64,000 nucleotides of DNA from a bacterium (lineage in GTDB: Bacteria > Myxococcota_A > Bradymonadia > UBA7976 > UBA1532). The notes below the pieces were generated by a model. The model had not been told where the DNA came from, did not search any database, and was given only the letters and a program-made list of their open reading frames with translations. The DNA lies in assembly GCA_030426085.1 (NCBI GenBank), contig JAUHYW010000004.1, positions 62,001 to 126,000 of the forward strand. The letters run 5' to 3'. Shown here in pieces: positions 55,870 to 63,331 of this stretch; position 1 is the stretch's first letter, and each line of letters begins with the position of its first letter. The translations under genes were made by a program, and so were the position numbers.

Positions 55870-56514
55870 TCACTGCCCGGTGGCCCAGATCAGGCCCCGG
55901 AAGTCCCCCGCCGCATAGCCCACCGCCGCGTCCTGCGGATACAGCGCCGCCAGCCGGTCCTTCACCGGCGGCGGCAGCCCCTCCTGCGCCCCGTGACACG
56001 TCACGCACAGCCCCCCGACATACAGCGGCTCGACGTAGCCCTTGCCCCCGCCCTCGATGTCGACGACCCGCGGCTTCGCCTGATCCTTGGGCAGCCTGGC
56101 GTACTCGTCGAGCAGCGGCACCAGCCACGGCGCCGGCGCGTTGCCCGGGTTGCGCAGCTTGCGCGAGGTGCGCCCCACCGTCACCCCGGCCTGCGCCGCC
56201 GCGGCGGTGATCGCCGGCGCCTTGGTGTTGCACGCCGTCACCGCCTCCCCGGGGCCTGCCTTCATGGCGGCCTGCAAGGCGCCCATCAGCGTCTTCTTGA
56301 GCGTACCGACCGCCGCCTTGGCCCGGGCCTCGAACGGCTGGGCCTCGGCCGCCGGCGCGGCGGGCTCCGCGGGGGGCGGGGTCTCGGCGGTCTTCTCGGC
56401 CTCGACGGTCTTCGGCGCTTCGGCGGTCTCCTCGGCCTTCGGCGCGTCGGCCTTGTCACAGCCGGCGATGCCCGCGAGGGCGGTGGACAGGATCAGGATG
56501 CGGATCGGCGTCAT
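55870..56514 (-). CDS. Haem-binding lipoprotein of the DUF3365/Tll0287-like family
   Basis: The 214-residue protein has a lipobox (GIAGC), an Ala/Glu/Pro-rich linker, and a domain with VTACNTKAPAITAAAAQ, VGRTSRKLRNPGNAPAPW and a CVTCHGAQ haem-attachment site. These match DUF3365 c-type haem sensor domains. It probably binds one haem in the periplasm and acts in redox sensing or electron transfer. GGGAG lies six bases before the ATG. It is convergent with the GE-repeat gene. Confidence 0.85.
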   Translation of the reverse strand: MTPIRILILSTALAGIAGCDKADAPKAEETAEAPKTVEAEKTAETPPPAEPAAPAAEAQPFEARAKAAVGTLKKTLMGALQAAMKAGPGEAVTACNTKAPAITAAAAQAGVTVGRTSRKLRNPGNAPAPWLVPLLDEYARLPKDQAKPRVVDIEGGGKGYVEPLYVGGLCVTCHGAQEGLPPPVKDRLAALYPQDAAVGYAAGDFRGLIWATGQ

Positions 56515-56622: not shown

Positions 56623-59600
56623 ATGGCCGATCCGACCCCCGAGTACGACGCCTTCATCAGCTACCCGAGTGGAGACCGAGAGCATGCAGTCAGACTGTTT
56701 GAAGCCCTCCTTGAGCGAGGTTTGAAGGTCTTCTTGGATGCTAAGAATGTGGAACTCCTAGGAGAGGATTGGAGGAAAGAACTCCCTCGATACATATCTC
56801 GGTCCCGTACGCTGGTGGCAATCGTCACCTCGTGTTGGGCGAGCGGGCGCTATAACCAGGATGAGGTAGATATCGCCTGTACGAAACGGGACAATGGTGG
56901 TCCTCCCTACAAAGTCATCCCTGTTCATCTTGAGGAGGGGATCTCACGGTCTCTAGGGATGATGGGGCAAACACCCCTGCATGCATATGACTTGCCGCCG
57001 GATGAGTGGGTTGACCGCTTGGTGGCCGCCATCGGCGCCGGAAACCCTGGGGGCCGCTCTCAGGAGCGAAGCCGGCGTCATAAAGCTGTCGATTCGGCCC
57101 GAAGAGCACTGGCCCTCGCGCGAAGATCCGGCATTGACGAAGAGGGGGCGATCACACGTCTGACGGAAGCCAAACGAGCGCTTAGAGCGGGGGGGCAACT
57201 GTGTGGAGGAGACCTCTTGAGCGAGAGATTTGAGCTAGTCGATTTGGTGGGGGCGGGGGGATTCGGCCAAGTATGGCGCGCTCTGGACACACACGATAAT
57301 CATCGGTGCGTGGCTGTAAAAGTACTGCACTGCCAGTGGGCGGCTGACCGGTCGTATCTCGAGCGTTTCGATAGAGGAGCGAGAAGCATGCGCCGCCTCA
57401 CCCATCCCAATATCGTTCGTGTCCTGGGGGACTGTCAGGAGGATGATGGCTTTCATTTCTTCGCAATGGAGTACATTGCCGGGGAAACCCTGGAACAACG
57501 AATCCAAAGGGGGCAGCCAGAGTCCACAGAGATAGTGAGGGTTATTTCAAGCGTATCACGCGCGCTACACTATGCCCATTCCCAGAACATCGTCCATCGC
57601 GACGTCCACCCAGCCAACATTATCGTTGGCAGCGATGGCGTCGTAAAACTGACCGATTTTGACTTGGTCTTGATGGACGACTCAACTGGCGGAACTCGTA
57701 CCGGGGTAGCTATGGGGCGAGTCTGTTTCGCAGCGCCAGAGACGTGGGAAGGAGCTGACCAAGCAACCTGGAGGGCAGATGTCTACGGATTGGCGATGAC
57801 TGCTGCCTATTGTTGGTACGGTGGCCCCATCGGCCCCACGGAGGTCCTTGACCGTCGCAAGTTCGTGGACCAACTGACGCGCTGCTCCCCTCTTCAGCGA
57901 GACCAAATCTGGAGAGCCTTGGCAGTTGAACCGGCAAAGAGGCACGACTCGATCGAGCAGTTCGGCGAAGCCTTGCGGAATCCAGAATTCGCCTCCAAGT
58001 TGCCCCGCATGGTTCGAGGTGCGAGCCACCGAAAGGGACGCACCAACCCATTGGCGTCCATGGGGGATAGGCTACCCGAGCTAGCTCTTCAGCATCTCAC
58101 GGATAGGTGGGATGGGGAGGACCTCGTCCGGGCGTTGTGTTGCCTCGGAGGCTCGGAGGCTTTGTTGGAAGAAGCCAGAGGGGGCTTGCTGGACTGGGTG
58201 ACGCCAGCCAGGAATACCCTTGAGCTATCATACGTCTTCTATGCCTTGGAGTCTCTGGGGCTAGGTGTCGAGCCGGCTGACTTTTTTCAGCGGGCGGGGC
58301 GGCAAATGCCTGATGAAGGATGGGGGGATTGGGTGCTGGTTAAGGGAGGGGACTTCTCACTTGGAGGCACCCTAAAATTCGACTCCCCCGTCAGGCGCGT
58401 CTCCCTTGACTCATTCCTTGTGTCGCGTCAGTTGGTCACCGTTGAGCAATACATGGGATTCGCTCCAGAGTCTGAGTTGCGCGGGAAGGTGTCTGCCTCA
58501 ACGCCAAGTCGCGCAATGAGCGGTCTCACATGGTGGGAGGTTTTTCTCATGGCGCGCTGGGCGTCGGCGCGTCTTCTCACGGAGGATGAGTGGGAGGTTG
58601 CTTGTCGCGCTGGGAGCAAGTTCCGATACAGCTTCGGCGATGATGCGAGTGAGCTAGAGCGGTACGCATGGTATAACAAGAATGCCTCCGGGGATGTGCA
58701 GAATGTTGGCAAGAAGGCCGCGAATTCATATGGCATATGCGACATGCACGGGCTGCTGTGGGAATGGTGCCAGGACCCAGTCCCTGGGAGCCAGGGGCCT
58801 GGTGCTACCGATGGGAGGATCTTGAGGGGGGGGTGTTACCGTAGCGGAGTAGAAGCACTTCGATGCGCGTATCGTACCAGCAACCGGCCAGGTCAGAGGA
58901 AGAAATGGCGTGGTGCAAGACTCGCACGAAGCACTGAGGCCGATCCGGCTATGGGGCCACTGCAGCGTTCTTCGCACCCCCAACGGGATGAGACGATCGA
59001 GAAGCCAGAGCAACTCGTATTGTTGGGTAACCCGACTAGTACGAGCGAGCGGACCGCCGCATGTGAGCCCAGTGCTCTGTTGATCTCCCGTGCCCTACAC
59101 GATACACCGCCCGCTCAGCGCGCGGCGAGGAGCCCGTCGCGCCAGAGGAGGTCGCGCGTGCCGCGAAAGTCGAGCGGGGGAGCGCCCGAGCCGCGCCAGA
59201 AGGTCTACGAGAAGTACTGGTACTTCGCCGCGAAGCGTCAGGAGATCTTCTATCGCCGCCTCGCCGGCCAGCCGGGCCCGTGGACCCACGATGAGATCTT
59301 GCAGACCTACAAGTTCTGCAACGCGTTTCGGGCCAGCGACCGGGTCTCGCAGTTCCTCATCCGCCACGTCATCTACGGCGACGGGCTGAGCACGGACGCC
59401 GAGGACATCGTCTTCCGCACGCTGCTCTTCCGCTTCTTCAACAAGAACGCGACCTGGGGCGTCTTCACCGACGCCGTCGGCGAGCCGCGGGCGCGCACCT
59501 TCGTGCCGGGCCGCTACAGCGAGGCGCTGAACGCCGAGATGGACCGGGGCAACGTCATCTTCGGCAACGCCTACATGATCGCGCCCCCCGGGCGGGCCTT

Positions 59601-60198
59601 CGGCGGCAACCACGACAAGAAGCACGACGGCTACCTCGCGCTGCTCGACCACATGATGCGCGACGGCTTCGTGAGCAAGATCCGCAAGGCCCGGCAGTTC
59701 CGCGACATCTACCAGCTCTTGCTGGGCTACCCGCTCATCGGCAAGTTCATCGCCTACCAGCTCGCCACCGACCTCAACTACACCGAGGTCATCGACTTCG
59801 ACGAAGACAGCTTCACCAAGGCCGGGCCCGGCGCCGAGCGGGGCATCGCCAAGTGCTTCGAGAGTCGGGGCGGGCTGGGCAACGAGGCGATCATCGACTG
59901 GATGGTCGACAACCAGGAGCGGGAGCTGAAGCGGCTGGGCTACGACCCCCAGGCGGTCTGGCTCTGGGGCCGCCCGCTCAAGGCCATCGACTGCCAGAAC
60001 CTCTTCTGCGAGACCGACAAGTACTCCCGGGTGGCCTTCCCCGAGCTGAAGAGCAACCGCAAGCGCATCAAGGCCCGGTTCAGCGCCACGCCCGGGCGGC
60101 CGATGCGCTACTTCTATCCCCCCAAGTGGGGCATCAACGACCGGCTCGATGCGCCCCCGGTCGAGCTCCCCCCGCTGGGCCCCGCGCCCGAAGACTGA
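56623..60198 (+). CDS. TIR-Ser/Thr kinase-FGE protein fused in frame to a DNA-base-modification protein (mosaic gene)
   Basis: A single open frame of 1191 residues. Residues 1-140: TIR domain (YDAFISY start, conserved E81 in NQDEVDIA). Residues about 205-455: protein kinase with GAGGFGQVW, K233, HRD327VHPAN, D345-F-D347 (DFG changed to DFD). Residues 565-772: FGE/SUMF1-like domain (VKGGDFSLGG ... ILRGGCYRSG ... GARLAR). A linker of about 70 residues follows, then the separate module described next. From about 56665 to 59095 the DNA is much lower in G+C (31 of 60 bases in row 57541-57600) and codon use is relaxed, while the first 45 bases and everything after 59100 look native. The fusion seems to result from recombination; the product may be made as one protein or as two. 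Confidence 0.8.
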   Translation: MADPTPEYDAFISYPSGDREHAVRLFEALLERGLKVFLDAKNVELLGEDWRKELPRYISRSRTLVAIVTSCWASGRYNQDEVDIACTKRDNGGPPYKVIPVHLEEGISRSLGMMGQTPLHAYDLPPDEWVDRLVAAIGAGNPGGRSQERSRRHKAVDSARRALALARRSGIDEEGAITRLTEAKRALRAGGQLCGGDLLSERFELVDLVGAGGFGQVWRALDTHDNHRCVAVKVLHCQWAADRSYLERFDRGARSMRRLTHPNIVRVLGDCQEDDGFHFFAMEYIAGETLEQRIQRGQPESTEIVRVISSVSRALHYAHSQNIVHRDVHPANIIVGSDGVVKLTDFDLVLMDDSTGGTRTGVAMGRVCFAAPETWEGADQATWRADVYGLAMTAAYCWYGGPIGPTEVLDRRKFVDQLTRCSPLQRDQIWRALAVEPAKRHDSIEQFGEALRNPEFASKLPRMVRGASHRKGRTNPLASMGDRLPELALQHLTDRWDGEDLVRALCCLGGSEALLEEARGGLLDWVTPARNTLELSYVFYALESLGLGVEPADFFQRAGRQMPDEGWGDWVLVKGGDFSLGGTLKFDSPVRRVSLDSFLVSRQLVTVEQYMGFAPESELRGKVSASTPSRAMSGLTWWEVFLMARWASARLLTEDEWEVACRAGSKFRYSFGDDASELERYAWYNKNASGDVQNVGKKAANSYGICDMHGLLWEWCQDPVPGSQGPGATDGRILRGGCYRSGVEALRCAYRTSNRPGQRKKWRGARLARSTEADPAMGPLQRSSHPQRDETIEKPEQLVLLGNPTSTSERTAACEPSALLISRALHDTPPAQRAARSPSRQRRSRVPRKSSGGAPEPRQKVYEKYWYFAAKRQEIFYRRLAGQPGPWTHDEILQTYKFCNAFRASDRVSQFLIRHVIYGDGLSTDAEDIVFRTLLFRFFNKNATWGVFTDAVGEPRARTFVPGRYSEALNAEMDRGNVIFGNAYMIAPPGRAFGGNHDKKHDGYLALLDHMMRDGFVSKIRKARQFRDIYQLLLGYPLIGKFIAYQLATDLNYTEVIDFDEDSFTKAGPGAERGIAKCFESRGGLGNEAIIDWMVDNQERELKRLGYDPQAVWLWGRPLKAIDCQNLFCETDKYSRVAFPELKSNRKRIKARFSATPGRPMRYFYPPKWGINDRLDAPPVELPPLGPAPED
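59158..60198 (+). CDS. 5-hmdU DNA kinase helical-domain/aGPT-pyrophosphorylase-like protein (independent start inside the mosaic gene)
   Basis: GTG 59158 is preceded by GAGGAGG at six bases, so this 346-residue product is probably the original gene. It has the family phrases YWYFAAKRQEIFYRRL, YKFCNAFRASDRVSQFLIRHVIYG and VFRTLLFRFFNKNATW, typical of the helical domain linked with 5-hydroxymethyl-dU kinases and alpha-glutamyl/putrescinyl-thymine pyrophosphorylases. No P-loop GxxxxGK(S/T) is present, so it is likely to act on a phosphorylated or pyrophosphorylated base made with partners. It is followed by a thymidylate-synthase homologue after 13 bases, as expected for a thymine hypermodification set. 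Confidence 0.8.
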   Translation: MPRKSSGGAPEPRQKVYEKYWYFAAKRQEIFYRRLAGQPGPWTHDEILQTYKFCNAFRASDRVSQFLIRHVIYGDGLSTDAEDIVFRTLLFRFFNKNATWGVFTDAVGEPRARTFVPGRYSEALNAEMDRGNVIFGNAYMIAPPGRAFGGNHDKKHDGYLALLDHMMRDGFVSKIRKARQFRDIYQLLLGYPLIGKFIAYQLATDLNYTEVIDFDEDSFTKAGPGAERGIAKCFESRGGLGNEAIIDWMVDNQERELKRLGYDPQAVWLWGRPLKAIDCQNLFCETDKYSRVAFPELKSNRKRIKARFSATPGRPMRYFYPPKWGINDRLDAPPVELPPLGPAPED

Positions 60199-60211: not shown

Positions 60212-61864
60212 ATGCACCGAAACGTGACCCGAGCCCTGGTCGACGGGCTGCGCCACCTGATGTCGCGGGGGGCCGTGATCGAGTCCCGGGCCGGCGAGAC
60301 CCGGGAGCTGCGCAGCCACGTCGTGCGCATCGAGCGCCCCGAAGAGCGGGTGCTCGTGCTGCCCGAGCGGCGCAACAACCCGTTCGCCGCGCTGGCCGAG
60401 ACGATGTGGGTCATCGGCGGGCGGGACGACCTGGCCTACCTCACCCGCTACCTGCCCCGGGCGGGCGACTTCTCCGACGACGGCGAGACGTGGCGCGGGG
60501 CCTACGGGCCGCGGCTGCGGGACTGGCGGGGCGTCGATCAGGTGCGCGAGGTCGCCCGGCTGCTGCGGGAGGACCCGGCCACCCGGCGGGCGGTCATGAT
60601 CATCTTCGACCCCGCGCTGGACTTCGTCGCGAGCAAGGACATCCCGTGCAACAACTGGCTGCACTTCCTCGTGCGCGACGGCCGGCTGCACCTGACGGTG
60701 GCCCTGCGCAGCAACGACGCGATCTGGGGCTTCTCGGGCATCAATGCCTTCGAGTGGAGCGTGCTCCAGCAGATGATGGCCCATTGGGTCGGGGTCGAGG
60801 TGGGCCCGATGACCTTCATGGTCGGCTCGTTCCACCTGTATGGCCGACACTTCGACCGGGCCGAGAAGATCCTGGCCCGGGCGCCGAGCCGCACGCTGTA
60901 CGACCACGGCTTCGCGGTGCCCCGGTTCACGACGCCGCTGGACCGGCTCGATGAGGCGATGGACCGCTTCTTCGCCACCGAGGACGCCATCCGGGCGGGG
61001 GCGCCCGAGGTCGACGACCGCATCGCCGCCGAGGCGGACGACTTCCTGCGGGTCGCCCTCCAGATGCTGCGGGTCTACAACCTCTACAAAGACGGCGCCG
61101 ACGGGCCGACGCTGAGCGCGGCGCTCGACCGCATGCCGACCTGCGACCTGCGGGTGGGGGCCATCGACTTCCTCACCCGCCAGAAGCGGCTGCGCCGGGA
61201 CCGCGACGCGTGGCTCACCCTGCGCCCCGAAGAGCAGGCCTTCTTCGCCGAATACTGGGCGGCCGGCGAGGACGCCTCGGTGGAGGACGTCTACCGGGTC
61301 TTGCAGGTGCTGCACGAGAAGAAGACCCGGGTCTACGGTGATAGCTGGAAGAAGCACGGCGAGCTGCTGGGTGTCTTCGCCAACATCACCCGCAAGTACG
61401 ATCGCATCGAGTCGGTGCTCGACGGGGCGAAGGCGACCGCCGACGAGAGCCTGATCCACACCCTGGCCGACCTCTCGGTGTATTCCGGCAAGTACCTGAC
61501 ATGGCTCGCCGAGCACCGCCCGGAGGCATTCGGTGACTTCCTCGCGTCCCACGGCGGCGACCGGGGTGCCATCGAGGCCTATCATCACAACGAAGGCTTC
61601 GATCCCATCGTCGACCTCTTGCTGGGGCCGAAGGGGCCGGCGCTCGAAGAGGGCGACGACCTGCGGGCGATGCTGTCGACCGTGCGCACCCACTACTCGG
61701 CGCTGGAAGACATCCTCACCTCGGCGAACCCCGACCGGGGGGCCGACGTGAAGTGCCGGGCGGCGGCGGCGCTGTCGCTGGCCGCGGCCAACGCCATCCG
61801 CTTCCAGGCGCAGGTTCAGCCGGCGCTCTACGCCGCCTTCGCCGAAGAGGTCGAGCTGCTGTGA
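60212..61864 (+). CDS. Thymidylate-synthase-like pyrimidine hydroxymethylase fused to Nmad1 (DUF1599)
   Basis: The 550-residue protein has an N-terminal thymidylate synthase fold with C146 in the active-site loop (IPCNNWLHF), N178 (GINAFEWS), phosphate-binding Arg (RRAVMII) and the GSFHLYGRHF motif. The retained Asn favours a uracil over a cytosine substrate, so 5-hydroxymethyl-dUMP or dTMP formation is likely. At about residues 358-432 is a DUF1599/Nmad1 domain (LHEKKTRVYGDSWKKHG, RKYDRIESVL, TLADLSVYSGKYL) found with nucleotide modification systems. GGAG is seven bases before ATG. It overlaps the NUDIX start (GTGA). Confidence 0.87.
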   Translation: MHRNVTRALVDGLRHLMSRGAVIESRAGETRELRSHVVRIERPEERVLVLPERRNNPFAALAETMWVIGGRDDLAYLTRYLPRAGDFSDDGETWRGAYGPRLRDWRGVDQVREVARLLREDPATRRAVMIIFDPALDFVASKDIPCNNWLHFLVRDGRLHLTVALRSNDAIWGFSGINAFEWSVLQQMMAHWVGVEVGPMTFMVGSFHLYGRHFDRAEKILARAPSRTLYDHGFAVPRFTTPLDRLDEAMDRFFATEDAIRAGAPEVDDRIAAEADDFLRVALQMLRVYNLYKDGADGPTLSAALDRMPTCDLRVGAIDFLTRQKRLRRDRDAWLTLRPEEQAFFAEYWAAGEDASVEDVYRVLQVLHEKKTRVYGDSWKKHGELLGVFANITRKYDRIESVLDGAKATADESLIHTLADLSVYSGKYLTWLAEHRPEAFGDFLASHGGDRGAIEAYHHNEGFDPIVDLLLGPKGPALEEGDDLRAMLSTVRTHYSALEDILTSANPDRGADVKCRAAAALSLAAANAIRFQAQVQPALYAAFAEEVELL

Positions 61865-62283
61865 CCCGCTTCGCGGTGGCGGTGCACGGGCTGATCGAGC
61901 GCGAGGGGCGGTTTTTGGTGATGCGCCGGGCGGCCACCGAGCGCTACTGCCCTGGGCTGTGGGATCTGCCCGGCGGCGGGGTGCAGGCCGGCGAGTCGGC
62001 GCTGGCCGCGCTGCACCGGGAGGTCGCCGAAGAGACCGGCCTGCGGGTCGCGGGGGTGGCTCCGCTGCTGACCCACACCAACCTGACTCAGCTACCCGAG
62101 CGGCAGACGGTGCAGATCGTGTATCGCTGTCACCCGGGGGATGACTCCGATGGCATCGTGCGCCTCGACCCGGCCGAGCACGATGCCTTCGAATGGCTGC
62201 CGCTGGGCGCCTCGGGAGACGGCCTGGGTGAGATGATGCCTTATCTGGCGGCGGTCTTCGCCCGGGGTGTCATCCCCCGCTGA
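61861..62283 (+). CDS. NUDIX hydrolase
   Basis: The 140-residue protein has a complete Nudix box at residues 39-61 (G-x5-E45-x7-R53-E54-x2-E57-E58-x-G60). The GTG start overlaps the stop of the TS/Nmad1 gene, so it is in the same operon. It could remove competing or toxic nucleotides, or process a modified nucleotide diphosphate in the pathway; the substrate is not readable from sequence. Its end overlaps the convergent jetD by 14 bases. Confidence 0.88.
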   Translation: MTRFAVAVHGLIEREGRFLVMRRAATERYCPGLWDLPGGGVQAGESALAALHREVAEETGLRVAGVAPLLTHTNLTQLPERQTVQIVYRCHPGDDSDGIVRLDPAEHDAFEWLPLGASGDGLGEMMPYLAAVFARGVIPR

Positions 62284-63331
62284 GCAGCAGCGCCTCCTGC
62301 TCCAGCTTGCAGCCCCGATCGAGCAGCGCCTCGGCCAGCGCCCGCAGCGGGTTGTCGGGGTCGTCGAGGTATCGCGTCAAGCGCCGGCGGTCGTGCTCGG
62401 TCAGCGGCCGGGTCGGGTGGCGGTCGAGCAGCGCCGGCGCCATGCGCCACGGCACCAGCTCGACGTCCGGCGCGGCGGCCCGCAGCAGGTCGCGGAGCTG
62501 GCGGTGGATGAGCAGGCCCCCCGCGTCGAGGTCGCCCCAATGCCGCACCCGGGTGATGCCGGGCAGGGCCGCCAGCCCGGCGACCCACCGCCGCTGGGCC
62601 CGCCGCAAGAAGCCCGAGGTGAAGACGCCCACCGTGTCGGCGAAGGCCCCGGTCAGCGCGAGGCTCTCGAACGGGGCCAGGTTCTCGACGGTGATGATCT
62701 CGGTCGCGGTCGTCCACAGCCCGTCGAGCCCGTCGACCACCGGGCCGGTGACCGCGTACCACGGGGCGCTCATCCGCAGGTCGACGGCGCGGCCCGCGAA
62801 CCGGTAGCCGGCCGGCCCGGCGGTGAGCACGGCGCTGGTCCAGTCGCGCACGAGGGTGTCGAGCGGGGCGTCGAACGCGGCCTCGATGGCCGCCCGGTGG
62901 TCCTCGACCCGCACAGCCTTGGTCTCGCCGAAGGCCTCGAGCACCAGCACCCGCTTGGGCACCGGCAGCGCGTCGGGGTCGGCGGCGAGGCGCTCGAGCG
63001 CGGCGATGAGGCGGGCGGCGTGATCGGGGGCCTGCCGCTCGGCCTGCCACGTCGCGTTCTGCGCCCGGCCGGCCTCGGTGATGCGCAGCGCCGTCGGGCG
63101 GGTGTCGCCCCGCCGATCGCGCTTCGACCCCCGCTCGATCAGGCCCGCCCGCCAGATCGCGTCGACGCCCCGCTCGACGTCGACGATGTCCGCCCCGGGC
63201 CCGGTGTAGCGCCGCAGGGTGGTCCAGCGCATGCGGCTGACGGCGGCCAGATCGGACAGCAGCGCCTCGGCCAGCGGGCGGTGGTGGGCGGCGAGCGGAG
63301 TCGGGTCGGGGGCCCGGCGCCAGACGGTCAT
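62270..63331 (-). CDS. jetD: Wadjet anti-plasmid system nuclease subunit JetD-like
   Basis: The 353-residue protein has an N-terminal winged-helix-like domain and a C-terminal Toprim-type nuclease core with E216 (TVENLAPFE) and D267-L-D269 (HWGDLDAGGLLIH), the acidic set expected for metal-dependent cleavage in JetD (DUF3322/DUF2220). Wadjet complexes (JetA-D) extrude and cut circular plasmid DNA. ATG 63331 overlaps the stop of jetC (ATGA). Convergent with the base-modification operon. Confidence 0.88.
   Translation of the reverse strand: MTVWRRAPDPTPLAAHHRPLAEALLSDLAAVSRMRWTTLRRYTGPGADIVDVERGVDAIWRAGLIERGSKRDRRGDTRPTALRITEAGRAQNATWQAERQAPDHAARLIAALERLAADPDALPVPKRVLVLEAFGETKAVRVEDHRAAIEAAFDAPLDTLVRDWTSAVLTAGPAGYRFAGRAVDLRMSAPWYAVTGPVVDGLDGLWTTATEIITVENLAPFESLALTGAFADTVGVFTSGFLRRAQRRWVAGLAALPGITRVRHWGDLDAGGLLIHRQLRDLLRAAAPDVELVPWRMAPALLDRHPTRPLTEHDRRRLTRYLDDPDNPLRALAEALLDRGCKLEQEALLLSGG

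What the first reader, a model, noticed from the sequence alone, without database searches (positions are those of the whole stretch)
56623..60198. Mosaic gene: low-G+C TIR-kinase-FGE block inserted in frame between native sequence
The first 45 bases of the TIR domain look native, then about 2.4 kb of much lower G+C encodes the rest of TIR, a kinase and an FGE domain. Native composition resumes near 59100 without a stop, running into a gene with its own ribosome-binding site and GTG. This implies recombination at a conserved TIR motif and an unusual TIR-kinase-FGE-base-modification fusion.
Basis: partly seen in the sequence, partly recalled or inferred. Interest (0 to 1): 0.85.

Follow-up and report, generated by a model that had tools for sequence, protein, structure and literature searches.

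The report
Foreign immune gene spliced into operon
A bacterium appears to have taken up most of a foreign immune-type gene (TIR, kinase and FGE domains) and joined it, just after a native start, onto its own DNA-thymine-modification operon; the mosaic is real in the assembly, but the giant four-domain 'fusion' is more likely an accidental run-on than a purpose-built protein.

Summary
One 1,191-codon frame (56623-60198) runs without a stop through TIR, protein kinase, FGE and 5-hmdU-DNA-kinase (HMUDK) domains. Its middle has third-position G+C of about 0.6; four native TIR-kinase-FGE paralogues in the same genome have 0.91-0.97, so the block is foreign. Codon likelihood puts the joins at 56650-56674 (just after a native start plus TIR box 1) and 59107-59191. 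The 'four-domain fusion' reading is weak. The native paralogues stop right after FGE. The next 69 codons have no homologue and no block-like coding signal. HMUDK has its own AGGAGG and GTG at 59158, where the relatives that were aligned also begin. No HMUDK relative examined here carries TIR, kinase or FGE in its own frame. HMUDK plus thymidylate-synthase-like (TS) is a conserved gene pair, often beside TIR genes, and both domains occur in experimentally validated anti-phage units (PMC13092281). Best reading: a horizontally acquired TIR-kinase-FGE gene body, captured behind a native start, that lost its stop and runs on into a native HMUDK-TS-NUDIX operon; HMUDK is probably still made from its own start. 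Donor, empty site and protein products were not found or tested. Assembly error is unlikely but not excluded.

The parts
55870..56514 (-). Tll0287-like gene, left native anchor (ortholog and its two neighbours in same order in congener G001)
   Evidence: Pfam PF11845; synteny with G001:C90 up to this gene, none beyond
56623..56667 (+). ATG and 15 native-composition codons including TIR box 1 (YDAFISYP)
   Evidence: codon log-odds -6.28, 0 of 746 block windows as low
56650..56674 (.). 95% interval of 5' composition breakpoint
   Evidence: codon change-point model
56653..56997 (+). TIR domain (aa 11-125)
   Evidence: PF13676 E 5e-14
56668..59106 (+). low-G+C foreign block
   Evidence: GC3 about 0.6 vs 0.91-0.97 in four native paralogues
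57232..57837 (+). Ser/Thr protein kinase domain (aa 204-405); catalytic loop reads HRDVHPAN where the paralogues seen have HRDVKPxN
   Evidence: PF00069 E 6e-31; alignment
58327..58929 (+). FGE-sulfatase / C-type-lectin-fold domain (aa 569-769)
   Evidence: PF03781 E 3e-31
58951..59157 (+). 69-codon run-on tail without homologue or block-like coding signal
   Evidence: score -0.054/codon vs body 0.131 sd 0.028; native paralogues end before it
59107..59191 (.). 95% interval of 3' composition breakpoint
   Evidence: codon change-point model
59144..59151 (+). Shine-Dalgarno AGAGGAGG
   Evidence: sequence, 6 bases before GTG
59158..60198 (+). HMUDK (5-hmdU DNA kinase helical domain) gene from its own GTG, 346 aa
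   Evidence: PF18723 E 6e-100; starts of aligned homologues fall here
60212..61864 (+). TS-like gene, 550 aa with long C-terminal extension; closest solved relatives are CMP 5-hydroxymethylases
   Evidence: PF00303; PDB 5b6d/5jnh best; similar long TS beside HMUDK in L053, L054
61861..62283 (+). NUDIX hydrolase gene, overlaps the TS stop
   Evidence: PF00293 E 4e-22

Best explanation
A TIR-kinase-FGE gene body from another, lower-G+C bacterium entered this genome by horizontal transfer and was joined after a native start and first TIR codons, upstream of a native HMUDK-TS-NUDIX operon (shown: composition and gene content; inferred: the transfer). The insert ends before any stop in its frame, so that frame happens to stay open into HMUDK (shown). 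HMUDK is still translated mainly from its own Shine-Dalgarno and GTG at 59158, with some 1,191-aa run-on made as well (inferred). Likely function, inferred from families: FGE senses a ligand, the kinase relays or gates it, and TIR cleaves NAD+ or makes a signal; beside it TS-like makes a 5-hydroxymethyl pyrimidine nucleotide, HMUDK phosphorylates 5-hmdU, and NUDIX cleans up. Together they would form an anti-phage locus whose sensor/effector gene was replaced or added.
For: Foreign composition against four native paralogues of the same architecture. Native start region. Native paralogues stop right after FGE. Tail non-block-like, and the low-G+C part of the tail stays open in 17% of shuffles. 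HMUDK stands without TIR, kinase or FGE in its frame in the loci scanned with those domains, and starts at the GTG; in 386 genomes of the phylum of L053 all 17 matches lie in frames of 252-434 aa. HMUDK+TS is a conserved pair; 9 of 11 such loci have TIR-family genes near, 0 of 10 HMUDK loci without TS (related species, so counts are not independent). TS and 5-hmdU kinase are newly validated anti-phage domains (PMC13092281).
Against: Donor not found. No empty site: the congener loses synteny beyond the Tll0287 gene. An in-frame join at both ends is what selection for a fusion would also give. No expression data.
Confidence: 0.62

Rival explanations
1. A functional four-domain fusion: the sensor-effector (TIR-kinase-FGE) is covalently tied to HMUDK so that sensing and base modification act together.
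For: Frame fully open and in frame at both joins; TIR genes recur beside HMUDK-TS; HMUDK is fused to other domains elsewhere (thymidylate kinase in L061, MazG_C in L034).
Against: Unique among the HMUDK loci examined; own Shine-Dalgarno and GTG; non-block-like linker; native paralogues end before it.
Confidence: 0.2
2. Assembly artefact: a misjoined or indel-bearing stretch. Either the block is chimeric, or a base error near 58935-59081 hides a normal stop.
For: Draft assembly of 178 contigs; other frames hold stops at 58935, 58989 and 59081, and a C5 run lies at 58977, so a one-base error there could remove a stop.
Against: Two separate misjoins, each in frame and each returning to native sequence, would be needed; the 24-base stretch checked at the 5' join is unique in the genome within 3 mismatches; no flanking repeats stand out.
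Confidence: 0.13
3. A native gene with unusual composition (relaxed or shifted codon use), not foreign.
For: The same three-domain architecture is native to this genome.
Against: Four native copies have GC3 0.91-0.97; the block is only 31-36% identical to the native copies aligned.
Confidence: 0.05

Closest known systems
Native TIR-kinase-FGE paralogues in this genome (C124, C173 58 kb, C73, C43)
   Same: Same domain order, 35-36% identity, TIR and kinase well aligned
   Different: High GC3, end right after FGE, no HMUDK in the neighbourhoods fetched
TS / dNMP kinase / 5-hmdU kinase / NMAD domains in experimentally validated anti-phage units (DefensePredictor, PMC13092281)
   Same: HMUDK and TS-like genes in one operon
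   Different: No dNMP kinase or NMAD found here; NUDIX and a TIR-kinase-FGE gene instead; the published arrangement was read from text and legend only, so whether all four domains sit in one unit was not seen
ThsB_TIR - Nmad2 - TIR/SLOG - thymidylate kinase - HMUDK - TS cassettes (L058, L061, L064, L065, L067)
   Same: HMUDK-TS pair with TIR genes adjacent
   Different: TIR of ThsB or TIR-SLOG type in separate genes; short TS
DGR-linked FGE/CLec conflict sensors (PMC10907252, PMC7159879)
   Same: C-terminal FGE behind TIR or kinase modules as putative sensor
   Different: No template repeat or reverse transcriptase shown for this gene

Membership tests
TIR-kinase-FGE conflict protein | TIR, Ser/Thr kinase, FGE in this order | tested here: met
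TIR-kinase-FGE conflict protein | Protein ends right after FGE, as in the native copies | tested here: not met
   frame runs on 69 codons plus HMUDK
TIR-kinase-FGE conflict protein | Catalytic residues of TIR (Glu) and kinase (Lys, HRD, DFD) | tested here: inconclusive
   candidate Glu in YNQDEVD, VAVK and DFD present by inspection; catalytic loop HRDVHPAN lacks the usual Lys
DGR target | Template repeat with adenine-specific differences | tested here: not met
   no template-like match to the FGE end in own genome; reverse transcriptase not searched
HMUDK (PF18723) | Helical-domain profile over cut-off | tested here: met
   331-335 bits vs cut-off 25
HMUDK (PF18723) | Phosphorylates 5-hmdU in DNA | not testable with these tools
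   no assay
TS - 5hmdU kinase - dNMP kinase - NMAD defence unit | TS and 5-hmdU kinase genes adjacent | tested here: met
TS - 5hmdU kinase - dNMP kinase - NMAD defence unit | dNMP kinase and NMAD in the operon | tested here: not met
   NUDIX instead; no Nmad or nucleotide kinase Pfam match in the genes scanned
Thoeris | ThsB-type TIR (PF08937) with ThsA | tested here: not met
   TIR_2 and TIR matched, PF08937 not listed; no ThsA among the neighbours scanned

The most novel reading that the evidence does not exclude
A laterally acquired immune sensor-effector (TIR-kinase-FGE) has been fused in frame to a DNA-thymine-modifying enzyme, giving one protein that senses infection, spends NAD+ and acts on modified thymine; or, more modestly, TIR-type sensors are exchangeable modules in front of HMUDK-TS defence operons.
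Probability: 0.15. Interest if true: 0.75.

Novelty: new variant of a known kind. Interest (0 to 1): 0.42.

Why it matters
It catches a conflict gene being swapped or added in front of a nucleotide-modification defence operon, with both composition joins placed to within tens of bases, and it links TIR-type sensors to HMUDK-TS, a domain pair implicated in phage defence only recently. It also shows how an open frame through four Pfam domains can be a run-on rather than a designed protein.

Tried and rejected
Donor search: phylum genomes with the TIR part (237 genomes), plasmids, viral contigs and 12 genomes carrying HMUDK relatives gave no close relative; (845-aa query, 400 genomes) failed in the machine and was not repeated at that size. 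Second copy of the TIR motif in the genome: none within 3 mismatches. Flanking repeats: longest direct match 8 bases, within shuffles; no inverted one. Empty site: congener synteny stops at the Tll0287 gene. Template repeat for the FGE end: none seen. Structure of residues 1-845 (6-row alignment): mean pLDDT 57.7, FGE itself mostly below 50, so it says nothing about the tail.

Full report
What is there. The window lies in a 10.1-Mb, 178-contig genome (contig C173, 62001-126000). On the + strand one frame opens at ATG 56623 and closes at 60198 (1,191 aa). Pfam finds TIR (aa 11-125), protein kinase (204-405), FGE-sulfatase (569-769) and the 5-hmdU DNA kinase helical domain HMUDK (860-1143) in it. 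A TS-like gene (60212-61864) and a NUDIX gene (61861-62283) follow closely on the same strand; a JetD-like gene converges from the other side.

The block is foreign. Across 56668-59106 third-position G+C is near 0.6, against 0.90-1.00 from about 59140 on. Native genes of the same architecture make the test fair: four TIR-kinase-FGE paralogues of 746-844 aa elsewhere in the genome have GC3 of 0.91-0.97. A native-foreign-native codon model favours the block by about 640 nats and gives 95% intervals of 56650-56674 and 59107-59191 for the joins. The first 15 codons are native in style: -6.28, against a minimum of -1.37 in 746 same-length windows of the block. Upstream, the Tll0287-like gene and its two neighbours keep their order in the congener G001; synteny stops there, so neither an empty site nor the pre-swap gene could be seen.

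The fusion. The aligned native paralogues end within about 15 residues of the FGE motif. In the target the next 69 codons have no homologue and score -0.054 per codon against 0.131 (sd 0.028) for the block body; shuffles of the 52-codon low-G+C part of this tail stay open 17% of the time. Stops lie in the other two frames at 58935, 58989 and 59081, among others. HMUDK has AGAGGAGG six bases before GTG 59158, in frame, and the relatives aligned begin at or within a few dozen residues of that point, one thymidylate-kinase fusion (L061) excepted.

How far that comparison reaches. TIR, kinase and FGE of the target were scanned, with HMUDK, TS and NUDIX, against the ORFs of L048-L069 and of L027-L038 and L107-L128. 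No HMUDK frame carried TIR, kinase or FGE. Two loci, L057 and L064, had a separate TIR-matching ORF more than 1 kb from HMUDK; L068 showed no HMUDK hit. Many of the loci hold under 4 kb, so more distant neighbours were not covered. The 22 plasmid records and 479 phage records were not scanned this way: five plasmid regions were read and entered, and no phage region was fetched; for the rest only the tblastn rows shown were seen. Separately, HMUDK_hel was found in 9 of 379 genomes of the window's own phylum (besides the target's own 1,221-codon open frame one frame of 927, an HMUDK-MazG_C protein) and in 17 of 386 genomes of the phylum of L053 (frames 252-434 aa). So the four-domain frame is unique in what was examined, not proven unique.

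What it probably does. HMUDK next to, or near, a TS-like gene recurs in L053, L054, L057-L062, L064, L065 and L067, from cyanobacteria, gut clostridia, Fibrobacteres and a Helicobacteraceae MAG. In nine of these eleven, ThsB-type TIR or TIR-SLOG family genes lie near; in ten HMUDK loci without TS none of those families was seen (family identities by Pfam on representatives; the species are related, so this is not a clean statistic). The closest solved relatives of the target's TS-like protein are CMP 5-hydroxymethylases, ahead of thymidylate synthases. A 2026 study lists a 5-hydroxymethyluracil kinase and a thymidylate synthase among domains newly validated in anti-phage units in E. coli (PMC13092281). 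FGE domains with the C-type lectin fold are proposed sensors in conflict systems of multicellular bacteria (PMC10907252, PMC7159879). A defence locus is therefore the likely role, by inference; no activity was tested.

Verdict. A real mosaic: a horizontally acquired TIR-kinase-FGE body behind a native start, running on into a native HMUDK-TS-NUDIX operon. The run-on is more likely accidental than selected. Recombination at the TIR motif is possible but not demonstrated. An assembly chimera is unlikely, since two in-frame misjoins would be needed, but a one-base error near the lost stop cannot be excluded without reads.

Noticed in passing
L041:6113-8647 and L040:5995-8235 (native TIR-kinase-FGE copies): Their FGE ends differ almost only at codon positions 1 and 2 (12 of 13 changes in the last 40 codons) while the TIR part differs mostly at position 3, as in diversity-generating retroelement targets; no template repeat was seen.
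   Followed up: partly
L058, L061, L064, L065, L067: Cassette of ThsB_TIR, Nmad2, TIR-SLOG-type protein, thymidylate kinase (in some), HMUDK and TS in gut clostridia, Fibrobacteres and a Helicobacteraceae MAG; Pfam was run on representatives from L058, L061 and L064 only.
   Followed up: partly
L034:7452-10172 and L061:3489-5201: HMUDK in one frame with MazG_C, and thymidylate kinase with HMUDK: fusions of HMUDK with nucleotide enzymes.
   Followed up: no
L107, L108, L109: HTH, ImmA/IrrE peptidase, TS, HMUDK and NTP pyrophosphohydrolase genes in a row on plasmids typed as conjugative, rhizobial and cyanobacterial (an acyl carrier protein gene is annotated in L109).
   Followed up: no
62270-63331 (-) and L046:2329-5166 (-): JetD-like gene with an SMC-like 945-aa neighbour; no JetA or JetB match in the few neighbours scanned, possibly a Wadjet- or Lamassu-like relative.
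   Followed up: partly
57595-57621: Kinase catalytic loop HRDVHPAN has His where the aligned native paralogues have Lys; activity may be altered.
   Followed up: no
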